This document shows positions 27,974-48,841 of a stretch of DNA of 64,000 nt, in pieces (position 1 is the stretch's first letter; each line of letters opens with the position of its first letter). The notes under the pieces are model-generated. The model was not told the origin of the DNA. It saw only the letters and a list, made by a program, of their open reading frames with translations, and ran no database searches. This stretch comes from Acrasis kona (Eukaryota; Heterolobosea; Eutetramitea; Acrasida; Acrasidae): assembly GCA_026419775.2 (NCBI GenBank), contig JAOPGA020000309.1, forward strand, positions 30,254-94,253, written 5' to 3'. The translations under genes were made by a program, and so were the position numbers.

Positions 27974-28863
27974 ATGACGCAGGCACTCCTGTCCAATGTT
28001 GAACTGCTAAACAGAATATTCAGCTACATATCTTTGCAACCTGAGATCCTAAGCAAACTGTGCTTGGTGAATAGAGTATTCTATTGCATCATCTCTTCAG
28101 ATCAATTTTGGAGGCGGATTTGGTTTAAAAAGTATCCAGGTAGCATGGGTATTATTACTAAGAATTATAGGAGCTCGTATATACTAATGAGACAGTATTG
28201 GAAAACGAAATGTCAGCCAATTTACAAATCAAAGAAGAGGGCATATAACAACCCTTATCACCTTGAAGATAGAGACCACGCTAGAATTGGAATGTTTGGA
28301 GAGGAGGGAGTTGGGAAAACAGCAATTGTTACACGATATACACAAGGTGTGTTCCTCGAAGATTTTGACCCAACTGGTAAATCTAACATTTATAAATTAG
28401 TAACCGTTTAGTTGAGTATAGCTATAGAAAGGTCGTGAAGCTACACGACAACGAGGTTCGTTTAGAAATTTTAGATACAGCCGCTGGTGAAGAGTACTCA
28501 AAAACAGGACAAAAATATCTCCGCATCTGTGATGGTGGAATGTTTTGCTTCTCCGTGTCAGATAGAAGGAGCTTCACATTTATTGCAGAAGAGATACAAA
28601 AAGCACTTCAAATGGATAAACCTGTAATTATGGTAGGATGTAAAAATGAGCTTTCGAGAGCAGTATCATTCCAAGAAGCACAACATTTTGCGCAGCATCA
28701 CAAAATACATTACGTAGAAACCAGTGCAAAAAGAAACACAAACATAACCAGCGCTTTTCAAGTCATGCTAGAGCACATCCTATATCAGCAACTCTATTTT
28801 ATACCTGCCTTCAAAGCAATAGCAAACAAAGAACAAACAAGCAGCAAGTGTTGTGTGATGTAA
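27974..28863 (+). CDS. F-box / Ras-like GTPase fusion with CaaX end
   Basis: Exons 27974-28376 and 28412-28863, with a 35-nt intron that falls between switch I and the following strand; 284 aa. Residues ~5-50 are an F-box (LLNRIFSYISLQPEILSKLCLVNRVFYCIISSDQFWRRIW). From ~104 a Ras-superfamily G domain follows: P-loop GEEGVGKT, switch I around FLEDFDPTVEYSYRK, switch II LEILDTAAGEEYS, G4 GCKNELS (Glu after Lys-Asn, degenerate against NKxD) and G5 ETSAK. The end CCVM is a CaaX prenylation box. The design implies a membrane-anchored Skp1-binding GTPase, perhaps a GTP-controlled ubiquitin ligase adaptor; that is inference. Confidence 0.88.
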
Positions 28864-28895: not shown

Positions 28896-31800
28896 TTATG
28901 CAAGTACAAGAGGTCTCATCATCATGTTATCTTCATGTTCGGCAATGTGGCAGTGCCATAAAAATGTACCAACCTTCCGAGCAAATTTCACGAGCACAGT
29001 CGTCACCTCGGAAGGAGGCGCCTGCACGACATCCTTCGGACCTGTTTCAAAAACATCAGGCATGGTCGCAGGACCAATGAGCTGCAAGTTTTTCCCATTC
29101 TCTTTGAGCAATGTGGCGTTGAATTTTTGTCGATGAAGAACTTTGAATGCCGATGTGTGGGTATGTATGGGATGCGTTTCGGGAGCAAAGTTGAAAATAC
29201 GCCAAATCTCCGTGGAGCCAGCCTTTACAATCTCTGTGGGAGGATCTTCATACATGAAATGTTTAATGGTCCCATTCGGAAATCGAGTTCCTTGTACTGG
29301 CATGTCGCTGATTTGAAAATCTTGTATCAACACTACATCTCTCGTTTTAATGGCATCACTAGGCATCAACGAATTAATGGCGTGGACAGGTGCCTCGTGT
29401 AAATGTACTTGTTCGTCCCACATGGCACAAGTCGATTCGTCTCCGTCATTTTCGTCAACCACGAATTCCATCAATCTCCCCTGATGACAAGGATCTACTT
29501 TAGAACCATAAGGATATGGCGTTGGCGCGTCATTCAAGAGAATGATGTCCTCTCCTGCATAATCACAAAAATCAACAAGAATTTCGACGCGTTCAGCAGG
29601 CGATAGAACAACTTGGTCCACGTTGTACACTGGTTGCGAGTGATATCCTTGATCGCTTGCAATGATGGTGAAGGTCATGTTGTTTGAGAATCGTAACCTT
29701 AAAAATCTTTGATTACAACCATTTAGAATTCTTAATCTGTACTTTCTTGTCTTGACCTGTTTGTATGGCCACACACGTCCATTCACAATCACTATTTGAC
29801 CATAGAATGTCATCTGCCACTCATATGGATAATATTGAATGTAGGATCCATCAGCTGTCTTTGCAATGATTTTATCTTGTAAGAATAGGGGAATGTCATA
29901 TTCGCCCTCTGGAAGGTTTAATCTAGATTCGAGAGCGGGTTCTTTGATCAAGTAGATACCGGCAAGACCTGCGTAAACTTGGCTTCTTGTATTTCCGAGT
30001 GAATGGTCGTGGTACCACAAAAAGCATGGAGGTTGTTCGTTGTCGTAGTTTGTGGTGAAGGTTTCACCTGGATCCACTGTATCCTCTGGTAATCCATCAC
30101 TATGTTGGTCGCTGTCATGTCCGTGCAAATGTGTCACTATCCTATTGGTTGTCAACCCAGCAGGAATTGTTTCCACATTCATAAAGGTTGAATTGGCAAG
30201 TAACTTGTTTTCCCAATGGACTCTTGTTTTGACGTAACGATAGTTGACGATGGTAGGGCCGGGATATTGAGATCCATAACCACGAACCAACACTGGAGGA
30301 ATATCGGAGTGAAAAGAGTGATAAAAATCAGTAATGTTGATTCTATACTCGTGTACATTGTGTAGTGTTCTGAATGGAGTGGCCACTTTGGGAATGGGTA
30401 GTTCATCTATGAAGTATCTCATGTTGAACACGGAACTGGTATCGCCTGAATATGGACATTGAGTACCTGTTTGAGTATGTTTATTAGGAGATCCAAATAC
30501 AATAGCCTTCACAATCATGGTAGAATGAACGCCACACCTGAAATACAATTCATTCTTTCCACGCGGCAACATCTGACGAGTGATGGTGACGTTGAAGGTT
30601 GCAGGTCCCTTGGGAGCACTGTTCACTCCCCCATTTAATTCTTGTAAACTATCGGCATCTACTGCTTGGTAAATAAAATGTCTATGAATGCGTGTCCATG
30701 AGATGGTGTCCCCAACTCTCACTGTCAGTACATCTGGCACGAAGACAACAATGCCCTCATTATTCAAAGCAGGATGTACTATGTGCGTCGTTGGAGGCGC
30801 TACAGCATTGCGCTGTGCATTCGGAATGATATCAACATCATATAAACAGATTTTTTTATTACGAGCACTATTGCTACAAATATCAGATAGAATGGTTCCA
30901 TCTGGACAAGCAGTCATCATGTTCGCTCTTCCCACAATTAGTCTCTTTGAAGCAAGTACACCAGAAGAAGCGTCCACTGACATGATACCGTCGGCAGCAA
31001 TTGTCAAGATGGTGTTGTTACCTGGCAATTCAATCACGCTCTGAGGCGTCACCGCCGCACATGTCTTCCACAACAATCTCCCTGATGTCTTTTCAATGGC
31101 ACCAATGTGTCCTCTCACACATGCCAAATCACTTGTTTTATAAACATAGTATGCAGCGGCAGTGTTCACGTCACTAAAAATGTTTGCTTTTCCTGAATTA
31201 CGAAATACTTTACTTCTCCACGCCATGGATCCAGTTTCTCTATCCAACACACAAAACTCACCGTCGCTAAAGCACTCCATACCGATGGTTGTGGAGGATA
31301 GCGATACGATTTGGCTGGAGTCGATCAAGTGGTTTTGGTTTTTCCAATAGTTGTTCATGACTCTTCTGGTCCATTTCAACGTGCCGTCGTATAGATCCAA
31401 TGCGATAATACTACCTGCGTAGTTATCGGGATCTTGACAAGATTGCGCTTGGGAGATATCTGCGTCGCTACACTGCAGCACTCTATTTGGCACGATTGTG
31501 TTGTGCCCTACGAACGCAAACAGTGTTTGAAGGTTTTCATCTACAACTAGAGAACTCCTCACTGCACCTCCGTAATGATTGTTGGGTACTGTTTGGAACT
31601 TCCATATTACTTCCCCATTACTCACATCTAGTGCATAAATACTACCTCGAAGTGGAACGTTTCCTGGTTCATTCTTTTCATTCAAATCGAGTCCAACATA
31701 TGCGATTCCATTATGAACCTCTGCAGATGAGGAAATTATGGAACGTGCAGTGTCGAGAGCCCTGGTCCATATCCATTGACCATTGGTTGCGTTGATACCA

Positions 31801-32168
31801 AATACTTGTGCAGACACTTGGTTACATACAATCAAAGTATTGCAATTCCTGTCACAAGATGGTTGTGAATTGCAGTACGCTCCTTTTGATGATTGTGGGA
31901 AGCTCGTTAGTTTGGTCGACCATAAAAGAGTTCCGTCTGTTGTTTTGAGAGCGTGCAACCATCCGTTGCGTTCTGGTTGCACAGTTACGTATTGATTGTT
32001 TATTGCTGCTGTTGTAGGAGTCGAATATGTATCGCCATACAGGTCGAACGACCACCTTATTCTTCTAGATGTTGTAGTTAATTGTTTTGGTTTAATCCTT
32101 ATGCAACAGCACCCTACAACAAGTAGCGTTATGATAAGGCATGCCTCTAGATTGCCAAGATTTTTCAT
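28896..32168 (-). CDS. Secreted PQQ-propeller / cupredoxin / multicopper oxidase fusion
   Basis: Intron-free, 1090 aa, with an N-terminal hydrophobic signal (ACLIITLLVVGCCC). Residues ~35-440 form a PQQ-type beta-propeller (GSIYALDVSNGEVIWKFQ, GSIIALDLYDGTLKWTRR, CVLDRETGSMAWRSK). Residues ~455-555 form a plastocyanin-like module with Cu ligands (HRHFIYQ; FRCGVHSTM). The rest is a CotA/bilirubin-oxidase-like three-domain multicopper oxidase with all four sites: THLHGHDSDQHSDG, WYHDHSLGNTR, HPIHTHTSAFK and WHCHIAEHEDNMMM. It should oxidise phenolic or metal substrates with O2; the propeller could add a second redox or binding function. Bacterial-type relatives suggest lateral transfer, unproven. 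Confidence 0.92.
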   Translation of the reverse strand: MKNLGNLEACLIITLLVVGCCCIRIKPKQLTTTSRRIRWSFDLYGDTYSTPTTAAINNQYVTVQPERNGWLHALKTTDGTLLWSTKLTSFPQSSKGAYCNSQPSCDRNCNTLIVCNQVSAQVFGINATNGQWIWTRALDTARSIISSSAEVHNGIAYVGLDLNEKNEPGNVPLRGSIYALDVSNGEVIWKFQTVPNNHYGGAVRSSLVVDENLQTLFAFVGHNTIVPNRVLQCSDADISQAQSCQDPDNYAGSIIALDLYDGTLKWTRRVMNNYWKNQNHLIDSSQIVSLSSTTIGMECFSDGEFCVLDRETGSMAWRSKVFRNSGKANIFSDVNTAAAYYVYKTSDLACVRGHIGAIEKTSGRLLWKTCAAVTPQSVIELPGNNTILTIAADGIMSVDASSGVLASKRLIVGRANMMTACPDGTILSDICSNSARNKKICLYDVDIIPNAQRNAVAPPTTHIVHPALNNEGIVVFVPDVLTVRVGDTISWTRIHRHFIYQAVDADSLQELNGGVNSAPKGPATFNVTITRQMLPRGKNELYFRCGVHSTMIVKAIVFGSPNKHTQTGTQCPYSGDTSSVFNMRYFIDELPIPKVATPFRTLHNVHEYRINITDFYHSFHSDIPPVLVRGYGSQYPGPTIVNYRYVKTRVHWENKLLANSTFMNVETIPAGLTTNRIVTHLHGHDSDQHSDGLPEDTVDPGETFTTNYDNEQPPCFLWYHDHSLGNTRSQVYAGLAGIYLIKEPALESRLNLPEGEYDIPLFLQDKIIAKTADGSYIQYYPYEWQMTFYGQIVIVNGRVWPYKQVKTRKYRLRILNGCNQRFLRLRFSNNMTFTIIASDQGYHSQPVYNVDQVVLSPAERVEILVDFCDYAGEDIILLNDAPTPYPYGSKVDPCHQGRLMEFVVDENDGDESTCAMWDEQVHLHEAPVHAINSLMPSDAIKTRDVVLIQDFQISDMPVQGTRFPNGTIKHFMYEDPPTEIVKAGSTEIWRIFNFAPETHPIHTHTSAFKVLHRQKFNATLLKENGKNLQLIGPATMPDVFETGPKDVVQAPPSEVTTVLVKFARKVGTFLWHCHIAEHEDNMMMRPLVLA

Positions 32169-32617
32169 TTTTGGGAAATTGGAAACTCTGGGAACAGATC
32201 TGTTATATAGTGACTAAAATGTACGAATATTCACACCATCATGGACTAGTACCTAAAATGGTATGTAATATGTGATGTTATAATATTCTATGAGACGCGG
32301 ACGGGTTAAAACAACAAAAACTTGTTCATTTCAAATTGATTCTAGGATTCAATACCCCTATCTGTTTGTTATCGTCGCAAGATCCAAATGATGAATATAG
32401 GCTATTCAATCAAATAACCACTGCTCCATAACCACAAGATTCAACATCAATCACCCTGTTATTTGACACCCCTAGGAGAAATACAGATTGTGATGACCTC
32501 AAGATGATTAACAAAGCCCATAAAAAACTAGTTTTAAACAATATACAATCACAGTGATTTTATACAATGTTAACAAAAAGTACAAGCATCTCTCCATTTA
32601 TTGTTTTCATCACTTTA
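32169..32617. other. Intergenic, oxidase upstream region
   Basis: About 450 bp with no supported gene. A TATATAG-like stretch lies just upstream of the oxidase start and may be its core promoter. Confidence 0.45.
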
Positions 32618-41646: not shown

Positions 41647-43597
41647 ATGGGATCACAGACAAAGAAGGGTAGGGGTGGGGGATCCTCAAAGCCGGCAAAA
41701 ACTGTGCAGAATACTTACTTCCCCAAATCAATTCATAACAAAAATGCTGCTGGCCCCCATTTTTTCCGGTTCGATGCTTATGGATTAGGAGATGAGGAGC
41801 TAAATAGCATAGTACAAGAGTTCGCGCACAAGAAATTAACTTTTCAATCAATGAAAAACAATGCCGGACTACATTTCTTTTTTCAATCAAATCAATTCAC
41901 AGATCGAGCACTTTCGTACATCAAAAATTTATTGGTGTATCTCAACGGAGGTCAAAGCCACAAATTCTTTATAAAAGAGATGAACCTCTCCGAAAATAAC
42001 ATCACAGGCGGTTGTCTGCACTTGATCTTGAATGAGAAAATCTTTTCATATGATGAGCTTAATTTGTCCTGGAATAACTTGAGTTCAAAAGGATTACAAT
42101 CTATTTCTCATTTTTTAGCAGATGGAGGGAAGATAAAGACTTTAAATCTCAATAAAAATGAGATCGGGAATGACCCCGGTGCTCTTTCTTATCTTTGCCG
42201 AAATGCTTTGATAAACAAATCATGTTCGGTTGAAGCACTGCTCTTGTCAGATAATAACATAAATAGTGTGTATAGTGTATTCACCCCTAGAGAAATTATC
42301 ATGCCTTTAGAGGATAGAATAGATGATGTCATGTGTCTGTGCGCAGTCCTGTATCATAATAATTTCATAACACATCTTGATTTATCCAACAATAATTTGG
42401 GCAATACTGGTTGTGGCCTCATTAGCCGTTGCCTGTCTTCGAAATCTACTTTACAAAAATTAAATTTAGCCAACAACAAAATTGGGGTTGTTGGTTTTAG
42501 AATGATAGCAGAATCCATCTACAAACAACACCACGTTAACTGATATTGATTTATCCTTCAACATAGACCATAAGGATGTAGCTTCGCTCTTTAGCGATAC
42601 AAAATTGAATATAACAGATTATGATGAATGTTTGTTTGCCATTAGTAAAATGCTTATGAAGAATAAAACTCTTAAAACTCTGTCATTAAAGTTATCTCAA
42701 AGTCGCGATGATTACCTAAAAAATAGGAAAGTGTTTTTGGAGAATGACGACCAGATCCAATGGGGTATGGTGTGGTTGTTTAATGGCTTAAAAAGAAACC
42801 AAACTCTCCAAAATTTGACAATTGATAGGAACTATCTACTGCCGCACTCTGAGAACAAGTTACTCAAAACTCTGCTCTATTCTTGTACCGGAATACAAAG
42901 TCTAAGCTTTGACTCGCTCTCATTAGATGACTCCTCTATAAGAGATAGAATTCTTGAAGTCATGACACCAAGGAGACGCAGTGCTCCTCACCACCTTCAG
43001 GAGGTCCCACCAACAAAAAATTTCCTAGATGTCATCCCTGACGACATCCTTCTACAAATTTTAACTTTTCTCAGTCCCAAGTGGCTGATGAGGATGCGTT
43101 TAGTCCAAAGTCAATTTAAAAGTATGATCAGTAGTCAAAGTCTCTGGCAGCAGGTGTCGAAGCTTTATTTTATTTTAAATCAAAATCGAGACAATAACAT
43201 ATTCAGTCATCTATGGGTACAATCTGATGCGTACATGTTGCAATATGATGAATTCCTGAGTGACGGTAACAATTCGCTACAACCAATAATAGTTAATGAT
43301 CTGGTGATTAGCATGGTAAAGAACGGCAGACGCAACAGATTGTGCTTCCACTCAAAAAAACATGGTGTTGTTGCTGTTTATGATTTGTCTACGCAGATAC
43401 ATGAAGTTAAAGACATACCACGTGCTGGAGACCTCAATGAAATATTTGAGATTGATAGGCACGTGGACCATCGCAAGGTGAGATACAGCGAGAAACAATG
43501 GCGCAGAGCTTGGATAACCTTAATAGAAACATATAGATGGAAGAGAACCACGACTGGGAATGGACTGCTTCAAATTGTTGTACGAAGAATAAAATAA
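41647..43597 (+). CDS. LRR/F-box protein with a one-base frameshift
   Basis: N-terminal half: basic leader, then LRRs (MNLSENNITGGCLHLIL, LNLSWNNLSSKGLQSIS, LNLNKNEIGNDPGAL, HLDLSNNNLGNTGCGLI, KLNLANNKIGVVGF). C-terminal half: more LRRs (LTDIDLSFN...), an F-box (DVIPDDILLQILTFLSPKWLMRMRLVQSQFKSMISSQSLW) and a unique tail. The two halves lie in different frames. The switch occurs at ACAAACAACACC (42521-42532): the first frame stops at 42543, while the second resumes the LRR consensus at once. One extra A in AAA (42523-42525) explains it and yields ~649 aa. An intron does not fit any frame. Confidence 0.8.
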
Positions 43598-46652: not shown

Positions 46653-48236
46653 TTATAATAGAACAGCAATGGCACCAGCAATGGTTCCTGCGGCCAACAT
46701 GTATTTAGATGTATCTGCAGATCCACTGGTCTGTTTCATATTAGCTTCTCCTGATCTACTATTCACTGATTCAACATTACTAGTTGGAGATGCGGTGGTA
46801 GTAGAAGAAGTAGTGGTTGTAACATCTGCCTGTTTTTGTTCCTGTTGTACTGCAACTTCCGCTTGTACATTGACTTGTTCGCTGCTGCTATCGGAGCTTC
46901 TGGTTTTTAAACCACATTTCTTACAAACTGGGCAGTGTAATGAATTTCTTCTCTTTTTTGACAAGTGGTGACCGCATGGACATGGAGTACAATTAGTTGG
47001 TGGATGATTTTCTTTTGGAGGACATGCCTTACAAACTGGGCATTTGGTGGAGTTTCTCCTCTTCTTGGATGTTTCGTGACCACATGGACATACTGGGCAC
47101 GGCTTTGGATCTTTTGCTGGTTTTGGATTTTTCGATGGTTTGGGTCCTTTAGTCGGCTTGCAAACTTTGCATACTGGACACTTGGTTGAGTTCCTTCTCT
47201 TCTTTGATTTCAGGTGACCACATGGGCAAACTGGACAATCAGTCGGTTGTGTTGGTTGTTCTGGACTATTTGGTTTATCTGAAGGTGGACATGCTTTACA
47301 AGTTGGACATTTCATGGAATTTCTTCTCTTCTTTAAAACAGCATGACCACATGGACATGCTGGGCAGTTTGATGGCTGCTTTGTGGGTTTAGGTCCCTTT
47401 GTTGGTTTCGGTCCTTTAGTTGGTTTACAAATTTTGCATACAGGGCACTTGGTAGAATTTCTTCTCTTCTTCGAAATTACGTGACCACATGCACATACTG
47501 GACAATCTGAAGGAGGCCCTGGTTGTAACGAAGTTGGTTCTGGTCCCTTTGTTGGTTTACAAACTTTACATACGGGGCATTTGGATGTGTTTCTTCTCTT
47601 CTTCGAGATCACGTGACCACATTGACACACTGGACAATCAGAGGGAGGTATTGGTGGGGATGTATTTGTTGGGTGTGGTTCTTTCGATGGTTTAGGTTTT
47701 GGATTTTTCGATGGTTTGGGTCCTTTAGTCGGCTTGCAAACTTTGCATACTGGACACTTGGTTGAGTTCCTTCTCTTCTTTGATTTTAGATTACCACATG
47801 GGCAAACTGGACATTCTACTGGTGGAACTGGCGGACTAGTAGTGGTCGGATTAGTTGTGACAGTTGGTGAAGCAGTAGCAGGTGGCTTTGTTGGAGCATT
47901 TGTTGTGGTTGGTGGATTAGTTGTTGGTGCTGCAGTAGTAGGTGACTTTGTTGTTGGTGCTGCTACAGTTGTGGGTGGATTGGTTGGAGCACACGTTGTT
48001 GTAGTGGGTTGTGGTGGGTGAGTTGTAGTTGGTGCAGCAGTGGTCGGTTTGGTTGTTGGAGCACAAGTCGTGGTAATGGGTGCTGGACAAACTTTACACT
48101 CAGGACATGATCCAGTATTCCTTCTTTTAGGTGATTCCACTATTCCGCATGGACAGGGTTTGCACAAAGTGACTGTAGCATGAGTGTAAATAGCAAACGT
48201 GAAAACAAGCACAAACAAAAGTGCCGTGTTCTTCAT
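46653..48236 (-). CDS. Cys-rich eight-repeat surface protein with mucin-like stretch and GPI-type end
   Basis: 527 aa, single exon. A signal peptide (LLFVLVFTFAIYTHA) is followed by a repeat, a Thr/Pro-rich mucin-like stretch (~55-150) and seven further repeats. The repeat is CPxCxCGxxxxKKRRNxxxCPxCKxC, six Cys each, eight copies, joined by KPTKGPKP linkers. The C-terminus is a Ser/Thr-rich stalk (TTTTSSTTTASPTS) ending in a hydrophobic tail (YMLAAGTIAGAIAVLL) without basic anchor, as expected of a GPI signal. A secreted, disulfide-bonded cell-surface or cyst-wall protein is likely. I know no family with this exact repeat. Confidence 0.85.
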   Translation of the reverse strand: MKNTALLFVLVFTFAIYTHATVTLCKPCPCGIVESPKRRNTGSCPECKVCPAPITTTCAPTTKPTTAAPTTTHPPQPTTTTCAPTNPPTTVAAPTTKSPTTAAPTTNPPTTTNAPTKPPATASPTVTTNPTTTSPPVPPVECPVCPCGNLKSKKRRNSTKCPVCKVCKPTKGPKPSKNPKPKPSKEPHPTNTSPPIPPSDCPVCQCGHVISKKRRNTSKCPVCKVCKPTKGPEPTSLQPGPPSDCPVCACGHVISKKRRNSTKCPVCKICKPTKGPKPTKGPKPTKQPSNCPACPCGHAVLKKRRNSMKCPTCKACPPSDKPNSPEQPTQPTDCPVCPCGHLKSKKRRNSTKCPVCKVCKPTKGPKPSKNPKPAKDPKPCPVCPCGHETSKKRRNSTKCPVCKACPPKENHPPTNCTPCPCGHHLSKKRRNSLHCPVCKKCGLKTRSSDSSSEQVNVQAEVAVQQEQKQADVTTTTSSTTTASPTSNVESVNSRSGEANMKQTSGSADTSKYMLAAGTIAGAIAVLL

Positions 48237-48841
48237 GAGTAGGTATGTCTTGTATGTTTTTTTGATACTTTCGTTTAGGAGCTCATGATATTTATAGTCC
48301 CGAGATGCTCTATTTAGGGTGAATTTGATAGCCAGTAAAACAACGACAATAATTGAAGTGCTTTATTAATACAAATAAAAGATTCCTCTACTTATTTGTA
48401 AATTTAAGTCATCTGAATCTGCGACAAAAACTCCGAGTAGGCTTAATCAATACCACTAGTTGCGAGGGTACAAAATCGATCCGTCTCATAATATAACCAT
48501 CACATGAATAAATTTCAACATGTAGGTTTCTTTCTATCTAGAATTCAGAAATAAAACGATAACTCATATTTTGTTAGTTCTTTGGTCAAGCATTTTTCCT
48601 TGCAATAATTGATCAAATGATGAAATCGTGTTAAATTTTAACATTCAACATTGAAAATAAAATCTTCAAATATAATTAAACTTCTTAGAACTAATAACGA
48701 ATCTGTTAAACGTTGTCAATCCTTTTATTGTTCAAACACCGCATCTTTTATTTTTGCTCTTTTTTCATCCTCCATTATTTACTTTTATTGTAAAACTCCA
48801 ACGTCACCCTTCAAAACTTGTCAGAACTAGAGTGACATATA
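48237..48841. other. Intergenic, divergent promoter region
   Basis: About 600 bp between divergent genes (Cys-repeat protein and PTEN). AT-rich; no gene seen. A GATATTTATAGTC stretch near 48290 may be the core promoter of the minus-strand gene. Confidence 0.4.

What the first reader, a model, noticed from the sequence alone, without database searches (positions are those of the whole stretch)
27974..28863. F-box fused to a prenylatable Ras-like GTPase
An N-terminal F-box is followed in one 284-aa chain by a near-complete Ras G domain (P-loop, DTAAGEE switch II, ETSAK) and a CaaX end. The G4 motif is CKNE instead of NKxD, hinting at altered nucleotide specificity. A nucleotide- and membrane-controlled SCF ubiquitin ligase subunit would be a new type of regulator.
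Basis: partly seen in the sequence, partly recalled or inferred. Interest (0 to 1): 0.75.

Follow-up and report, generated by a model that had tools for sequence, protein, structure and literature searches.

The report
F-box fused to degenerate prenylatable Ras
In the slime-mould-like amoeba Acrasis kona, one protein joins a ubiquitin-ligase adaptor motif (F-box) to a Ras-like domain with a lipid-anchor tail, and it belongs to a family of about twenty such proteins whose Ras part has mostly lost a residue that Ras needs to switch itself off.

Summary
Window 27974-28863 encodes one 284-aa chain: F-box-like domain (residues 10-51, above Pfam's cut-off), Ras domain (107-257, 125.5 bits) and CaaX end CCVM, with a 35-nt intron. 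F-box, P-loop and switch I lie in one uninterrupted exon, so the fusion does not hang on the intron. The organism is Acrasis kona; NCBI's model (AKO1_010770) drops ten switch-I residues, probably wrongly.

It is not alone. I found 19 F-box-Ras gene models in this genome and 3 F-box-Rho ones; one origin for both types is rejected (AU p=1.5e-5). Of the 19, 16 end in a clear CaaX, 1 keeps Gln61, 11 have Cys for Asn116; only the window protein has Glu for Asp119. It also has G12E, G60A, Q61G.

Best reading: not altered nucleotide specificity, but membrane-tethered, probably SCF-linked receptors built on non-cycling Ras folds. "New type of regulator" is overstated: TbFRP (FYVE-F-box-GTPase), F-box/ARF fusions, Rab40-CUL5 and RhoBTB-CUL3 are precedents. 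New, as far as searched: F-box-Ras-CaaX, its expansion, and the lost switch residues. Skp1 binding and prenylation are untested; the F-box lacks the usual Leu-Pro start.

The parts
27974..28863 (+). whole gene, 284-aa F-box-Ras protein (NCBI AKO1_010770 of Acrasis kona, there 274 aa)
28001..28126 (+). F-box-like domain, residues 10-51; predicted helices 9-18, 23-35, 43-53
28139..28282 (+). post-F-box/linker region (residues 56-103), starts GSMGIITKNYRSSYILM; 40 of 48 residues shared with P0002
28298..28321 (+). G1/P-loop GEEGVGKT (A11E, G12E in H-Ras numbering)
28377..28411 (+). 35-nt GT-AG intron, phase 1, after EDFDPT; same place and phase as a 36-nt intron in the unfused Ras gene of locus L018
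28474..28494 (+). G3/switch II DTAAGEE (G60A, Q61G)
28639..28650 (+). G4 CKNE in place of NKxD (N116C, D119E)
28717..28731 (+). G5 ETSAK
28849..28860 (+). CaaX end CCVM

Best explanation
A membrane-tethered F-box protein whose C-terminal domain is a degenerate, non-cycling Ras fold. Proposed mechanism: the N-terminal F-box docks on Skp1-CUL1 (inferred); prenylation of CCVM anchors the protein at a membrane (inferred); the Ras fold, locked in one state or little dependent on hydrolysis, recruits proteins to be ubiquitinated there, possibly Ras effectors or regulators, as Rab40b recruits its effector EPLIN to CUL5 (inferred by analogy). Shown here by sequence: the single-chain architecture, the family in one genome, its retained CaaX ends and its loss of hydrolysis residues. 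Not shown: Skp1 binding, prenylation, nucleotide state, substrates.
For: Fusion in one exon; F-box above Pfam cut-off. A profile of 14 family F-box regions gives 25 PDB matches at E up to 1: 13 are named F-box proteins and 4 more I know to carry an F-box (recalled), best E 0.041. 19 F-box-Ras gene models span both domains, 16 of 19 with a clear Cys at -4. Gln61 is lost in 18 of 19 against 5 of 28 unfused GTPase rows (the unfused rows are mostly the best-scoring Ras/Rab/Rho matches, which favours canonical ones). H-Ras G60A has drastically impaired intrinsic GTPase activity (PMC4867591). Paralogue pair C561/C504: dN/dS 0.17 for F-box plus linker, 0.43 for the G domain; C649/C233: 0.37 and 0.53, so both parts are under constraint. 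Possible partners are encoded: Skp1, several cullins, not assigned to types, three loci matching the prenyltransferase family PF00432. Precedents: FBXL2 needs its CaaX for membrane location and for binding neddylated CUL1 (PMC5627969); Rab40b binds CUL5 in either nucleotide state and its substrate EPLIN preferentially when GTP-bound (PMC8129794). C229, C586 and C995 keep the whole H-Ras effector loop YDPTIEDSY.
Against: The F-box is F-box-like: the Pfam match begins at profile position 7 and the usual Leu-Pro start is missing in the window protein; 6 of 19 family N-termini pass a Pfam F-box cut-off and 2 of 19 (C303, C233) match no F-box model. Unrelated proteins, such as a hemoglobin at E 0.072, lie among the profile's 25 PDB matches. 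No test of Skp1 binding. The fold searches were filled by Ras structures and did not test the F-box part. G60A Ras favours state 1, described as having drastically impaired affinity for effectors, and the window protein has Tyr for Asp38, so it is a poor candidate to bind classical Ras effectors. No expression data were seen.
Confidence: 0.5

Rival explanations
1. Self-destruct tag: the F-box does not recruit substrates but hands the attached GTPase itself to SCF, giving a short-lived Ras-like protein, as its authors suggest for TbFRP.
For: The TbFRP paper suggests that the F-box may be coupled to rapid proteolysis, and full-length TbFRP is rapidly cleaved (PMC3593210). Rnd proteins, which also do not cycle, have a half-life of about 2.5 h (PMC13236570).
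Against: A degron role would not by itself explain why Gln61 went in 18 of 19 members while a clear CaaX stayed in 16 of 19.
Confidence: 0.2
2. A working GTP/GDP (or other nucleotide) switch with altered specificity, controlling SCF activity at membranes.
For: Lys16, Thr35, Asp57, Lys117 and ETSAK are kept; N116C and D119E touch the base-binding motif. C995, the one sibling with both Gln61 and NKxD, may be such a switch.
Against: G12E, G60A and Q61G in the same protein; D119E occurs in 1 of 19 models only; Cys at 116 is found in Rnd3, whose GCKSD was checked against PDB entry 1m7b, a 'small GTP-binding protein'.
Confidence: 0.15
3. A decaying paralogue: F-box and G domain are both drifting and the gene has no important role.
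For: Non-canonical residues in both domains; a copy that ends early exists elsewhere in the family (C72).
Against: Open frame, CaaX, 75% identity with P0002 including the linker (40 of 48) and GEEGVGKT; dN/dS under 1 in the two paralogue pairs with unsaturated dS.
Confidence: 0.1
4. The F-box binds Skp1 or another partner outside any ubiquitin ligase and serves as a scaffold.
For: The F-box lacks the Leu-Pro start; F-box proteins outside SCF are known (recalled, no call).
Against: No positive evidence here.
Confidence: 0.05

Closest known systems
TbFRP, FYVE-F-box-Ras-like GTPase of Euglenozoa (PMC3593210; section 3.1 and passages read)
   Same: F-box N-terminal to a Ras-superfamily domain in one chain; membrane-linked.
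   Different: TbFRP has a FYVE domain and ends in VLLD without CaaX; its GTPase is nearest TbRab18 and Ypt6; a single gene; its authors found no orthologue in Naegleria gruberi. Here: no FYVE, CaaX present, Ras type, 19 gene models.
Rab40-CUL5 (SOCS-box Rab GTPase; PMC8129794, passages read)
   Same: Small GTPase with a lipid-anchor site that is itself the substrate receptor of a cullin-RING ligase.
   Different: C-terminal SOCS box and CUL5 instead of N-terminal F-box and (presumed) CUL1; EPLIN binding to Rab40b depends on nucleotide.
RhoBTB-CUL3 (PMC13236570, passages read)
   Same: Atypical GTPase in a cullin-ligase complex.
   Different: BTB domains and CUL3; Rho type (domain make-up recalled).
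ARF-family proteins fused to F-box or BTB (PMC8358228, passages read)
   Same: Lineage-specific joining of a Ras-superfamily domain to ubiquitin-linked domains.
   Different: ARF domain, not Ras; the passages seen describe no CaaX family of this kind.
FBXL2, geranylgeranylated F-box protein (PMC5627969, passages read)
   Same: F-box protein with C-terminal CaaX, acting in an SCF at membranes.
   Different: Leucine-rich repeats instead of a G domain (recalled).
Rnd3/RhoE
   Same: G4 motif with Cys for Asn116 (GCKSD); does not cycle, GTP-loaded (PMC13236570, passages).
   Different: Rho type, keeps Asp at 119; no F-box (recalled).

Membership tests
F-box proteins | sequence match to an F-box profile | tested here: met
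   PF12937 29.8 bits for residues 1-103, cut-off 24.3; PF00646 stays below its cut-off (16.7 against 20.5).
F-box proteins | Leu-Pro start of the F-box consensus (consensus recalled) | tested here: not met
   Residues 6-11 read LSNVEL; the Pfam match begins at profile position 7. Two siblings keep it (C995 LPTD, C675 LPVD).
F-box proteins | three-helix F-box fold | tested here: inconclusive
   Predicted helices 9-18, 23-35, 43-53 fit; the fold comparison covered residues 99-253 only.
F-box proteins | binds Skp1 | not testable with these tools
   Skp1 gene present.
Ras family GTPases | Ras domain sequence and fold | tested here: met
Ras family GTPases | catalytic Gln61 and Gly12/Gly60 | tested here: not met
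   G12E, G60A, Q61G.
Ras family GTPases | G4 NKxD | tested here: not met
   CKNE.
CaaX proteins | Cys at position -4 of the C-terminus | tested here: met
   CCVM.
CaaX proteins | prenylation and membrane location | not testable with these tools
   Three loci matching PF00432 in the genome.
TbFRP | N-terminal FYVE domain | tested here: not met
   No FYVE in the Pfam scan of the whole protein at E up to 1.
Rab40 | C-terminal SOCS box | tested here: not met
   No SOCS box in the Pfam scan at E up to 1.
RhoBTB | BTB domains | tested here: not met
   No BTB in the Pfam scan at E up to 1.

The most novel reading that the evidence does not exclude
Acrasis kona runs a whole family of prenylated SCF receptors in which a non-cycling Ras fold is the substrate-binding domain: proteins that look like locked Ras, bind Ras partners at the membrane (best candidates C229, C586 and C995, which keep the effector loop), and mark them for ubiquitination. 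Together with the separate F-box-Rho genes this would be a CUL1 counterpart to Rab40-CUL5 and RhoBTB-CUL3, reached at least twice in one genome.
Probability: 0.3. Interest if true: 0.75.

Novelty: new variant of a known kind. Interest (0 to 1): 0.56.

Why it matters
Small GTPases have been drawn into cullin ligases with BTB (CUL3) and SOCS (CUL5) adaptors and, in trypanosomes, joined to an F-box of unclear role. A family of about twenty F-box-Ras proteins in an amoeba that aggregates into fruiting bodies makes it testable whether a Ras fold can serve as a substrate receptor, and whether ubiquitination trims Ras signalling at membranes in a lineage far from animals and fungi. It also shows degenerate Ras folds keeping lipid-anchor motifs while losing switching residues.

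Tried and rejected
Rejected: 'two genes': F-box and P-loop share one exon. Rejected as less likely: NCBI's splice of AKO1_010770 (inferred 65-nt intron removing GVFLEDFDPT): P0002 keeps this stretch and the 35-nt intron coincides with one of the unfused Ras gene L018. My first tally took C995 (L043) as unfused; its F-box was found later, so the trees and counts treat it as unfused; the counts in this report move that one row, the trees were not rebuilt.

Led nowhere: three protein searches returned no F-box-Ras protein from another named organism; candidates must share exact words with the query, so this does not show absence. P0002 is the only relative outside this genome seen with the fusion. 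The fold searches say nothing on the F-box half. The dN/dS script stopped with an error in the sixth of seven pairs; five pairs are complete, three of them with saturated dS (pN/pS 0.28-0.52). The free tree does not hold the F-box-Ras G domains together, and the branches there have low support.

Rows dropped: one search printed only models that reached both ends (query start under 45, end over 190, score over 80). For some searches, 11 of 40 loci were left out: three were fused genes already listed, eight were duplicates or broken copies. In alignment A1 the C463 row was cut nine residues short by me (its frame ends KCSIISCQRGCLYT); I count its CaaX as unclear. The C569 model starts inside the F-box; for its F-box letters were taken from the matching copy on C673 (L080). 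The starts of C233 and C896 and the end of C896 are uncertain.

Full report
What is there. The two exons 27974-28376 and 28412-28860 join to a 284-aa protein; the unspliced frame stops soon after the intron begins. An in-frame stop lies directly before the start codon. Exon 1 alone encodes the F-box, linker, P-loop and switch I, so the joining of F-box and G domain needs no splicing. The gene sits between a phospholipid-translocating-type P-type ATPase frame (upstream, same strand, ending 27846) and a PQQ-propeller/multicopper oxidase frame on the other strand (28896-32213). Pfam finds Ras (125.5 bits) and F-box-like (27.5 bits in the whole protein, 29.8 for residues 1-103; cut-off 24.3). The C-terminus is SSKCCVM.

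Whose it is. The best database match is AKO1_010770 of Acrasis kona, on a contig of 94253 bases, the length of contig C156 in which the window lies. NCBI's model has 274 aa and omits GVFLEDFDPT, which contains Thr35 of switch I. The 35-nt intron is better supported: P0002, a public sequence of unknown species, is identical at 101 of 134 positions, runs through this stretch and leaves the Ras frame right after DPT, and the unfused Ras gene of L018 has a 36-nt intron at the same place and phase. The genome paper (PMC11589745, passages) states introns of 9-95 bp, reports a wealth of Ras GTPases, and has no mention of 'F-box' in its main text.

A family. Searching the genome with the window protein and with two siblings and modelling introns with a small spliced-alignment script gave 18 F-box-Ras gene models that span both domains; a check of 31 loci taken as unfused or left open added one more, C995, making 19. 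There is also a near-identical copy (C894, of C303) and three copies not modelled whole (C72, C797, C233:67157). These are lower bounds: the searches score only the best candidates. Of five family members that NCBI was seen to hold, two models are identical to mine (P0012, P0034) and three differ only at the splice site (P0001, P0013, P0033); P0033 is named 'rasC' and P0012 'Ras-related GTPase', so the fusion is not visible in those names. Three further genes join an F-box to a Rho-type domain (C849, C230, C85). One clade holding all 21 fused G domains in the tree is rejected (AU p 1.5e-5); one clade of the 18 Ras-type ones is not (p 0.185), but the free tree does not hold them together and several intron patterns occur (C995 was counted as unfused there).

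F-box quality. The N-termini of the 19 give: 6 above a Pfam F-box cut-off (C156, C561, C504, C808, C569, C675), 11 below it but with an F-box model at E up to 0.2, and 2 without any (C303, C233) (C995 was scanned in a longer piece, C569 from its copy on C673). A profile of 14 of them against PDB sequences gives 25 matches at E up to 1, best E 0.041: 13 are named F-box proteins, 4 more I know to carry an F-box (recalled), 8 are unrelated, among them a hemoglobin at E 0.072. This is weak one by one and consistent as a set. The missing Leu-Pro start is a real caution for Skp1 binding.

G-domain anatomy. In H-Ras numbering the window protein has A11E, G12E, G60A, Q61G, N116C and D119E, and keeps K16, T35, D57, K117 and S145-A146-K147. 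Among the 19, Gln61 is kept in 1 (C995), Cys replaces Asn116 in 11, Asp119 is kept in 18 and Lys16 in 19. In 28 unfused GTPase rows of the same genome Gln61 is kept in 23, Asn or Thr stands at 116 in 28, Asp119 in 28 (corrected for C995). The unfused rows are mostly the best-scoring Pfam matches, which favours canonical ones. So loss of the hydrolysis residue goes with the fusion in this sample; the guanine-specificity Asp is lost in the window protein only. H-Ras G60A has drastically impaired intrinsic GTPase activity and mostly adopts state 1, which binds effectors poorly (PMC4867591, passages); this speaks against the window protein itself binding classical Ras effectors. Rnd3 reads GCKSD and is described as GTP-loaded and not cycling in a review (PMC13236570, passages).

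Tail. A Cys at -4 is clear in 16 of 19, unclear in C463, absent in C87 and C896. With an assumed 3% chance per protein, 16 or more of 18 would have probability about 6e-23 (computed before C995 was added and with C463 counted in, and ignoring that the genes are related, so it shows only that chance is no explanation).

How it probably works. The CaaX and F-box, constraint on both parts (dN/dS 0.17-0.53 in the two pairs with unsaturated dS) and the presence of Skp1, cullins and prenyltransferase-family genes make a membrane-tethered SCF receptor the likeliest function; loss of hydrolysis residues makes reversible switching unlikely for most members. FBXL2 shows that an F-box protein can need its CaaX for membrane location and for neddylated CUL1 (PMC5627969, passages). 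Rab40b shows that a GTPase can be a receptor whose substrate is its effector (PMC8129794, passages). Every functional step here remains inferred.

Novelty. Searches for the combination found TbFRP and ARF/F-box fusions but no F-box-Ras-CaaX protein and no such family in what was listed; papers outside the held open-access library and supplements were not searched. Hence a new variant of a known kind.

Noticed in passing
G000:C849 about 46860-48440 (locus L072) and G000:C230 (L071): A 518-aa model joins a 2OG-Fe(II) oxygenase domain, an F-box and a Rho-type GTPase with CaaX end CTVQ; C230 holds a similar frame with a more degenerate GTPase part and no CaaX (not scanned with Pfam as a protein).
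   Followed up: partly
window 28896-32213 (-): An 1105-aa open frame joins a PQQ/BamB-type beta-propeller to multicopper-oxidase domains in one chain.
   Followed up: no
G000:C995:65111-65647 (locus L043): F-box-Ras with Gln61, NKxD, full YDPTIEDSY loop and CaaX CLLS: the sibling most likely to be a working switch.
   Followed up: partly
loci L049, L064, L074, L073, L047: Five F-box-Ras models share a phase-0 intron in the first strand of the G domain, i.e. at the border between the two domains, which would suit exon joining.
   Followed up: no
window 28347-28411: NCBI's AKO1_010770 model removes ten switch-I residues, as if by an upstream donor; NCBI's P0033 ('rasC') carries 13 extra residues where my model has a 39-nt intron.
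   Followed up: partly
window 43028-43159 (+): A second F-box match (39.7 bits) in a 362-aa frame of the same window.
   Followed up: no
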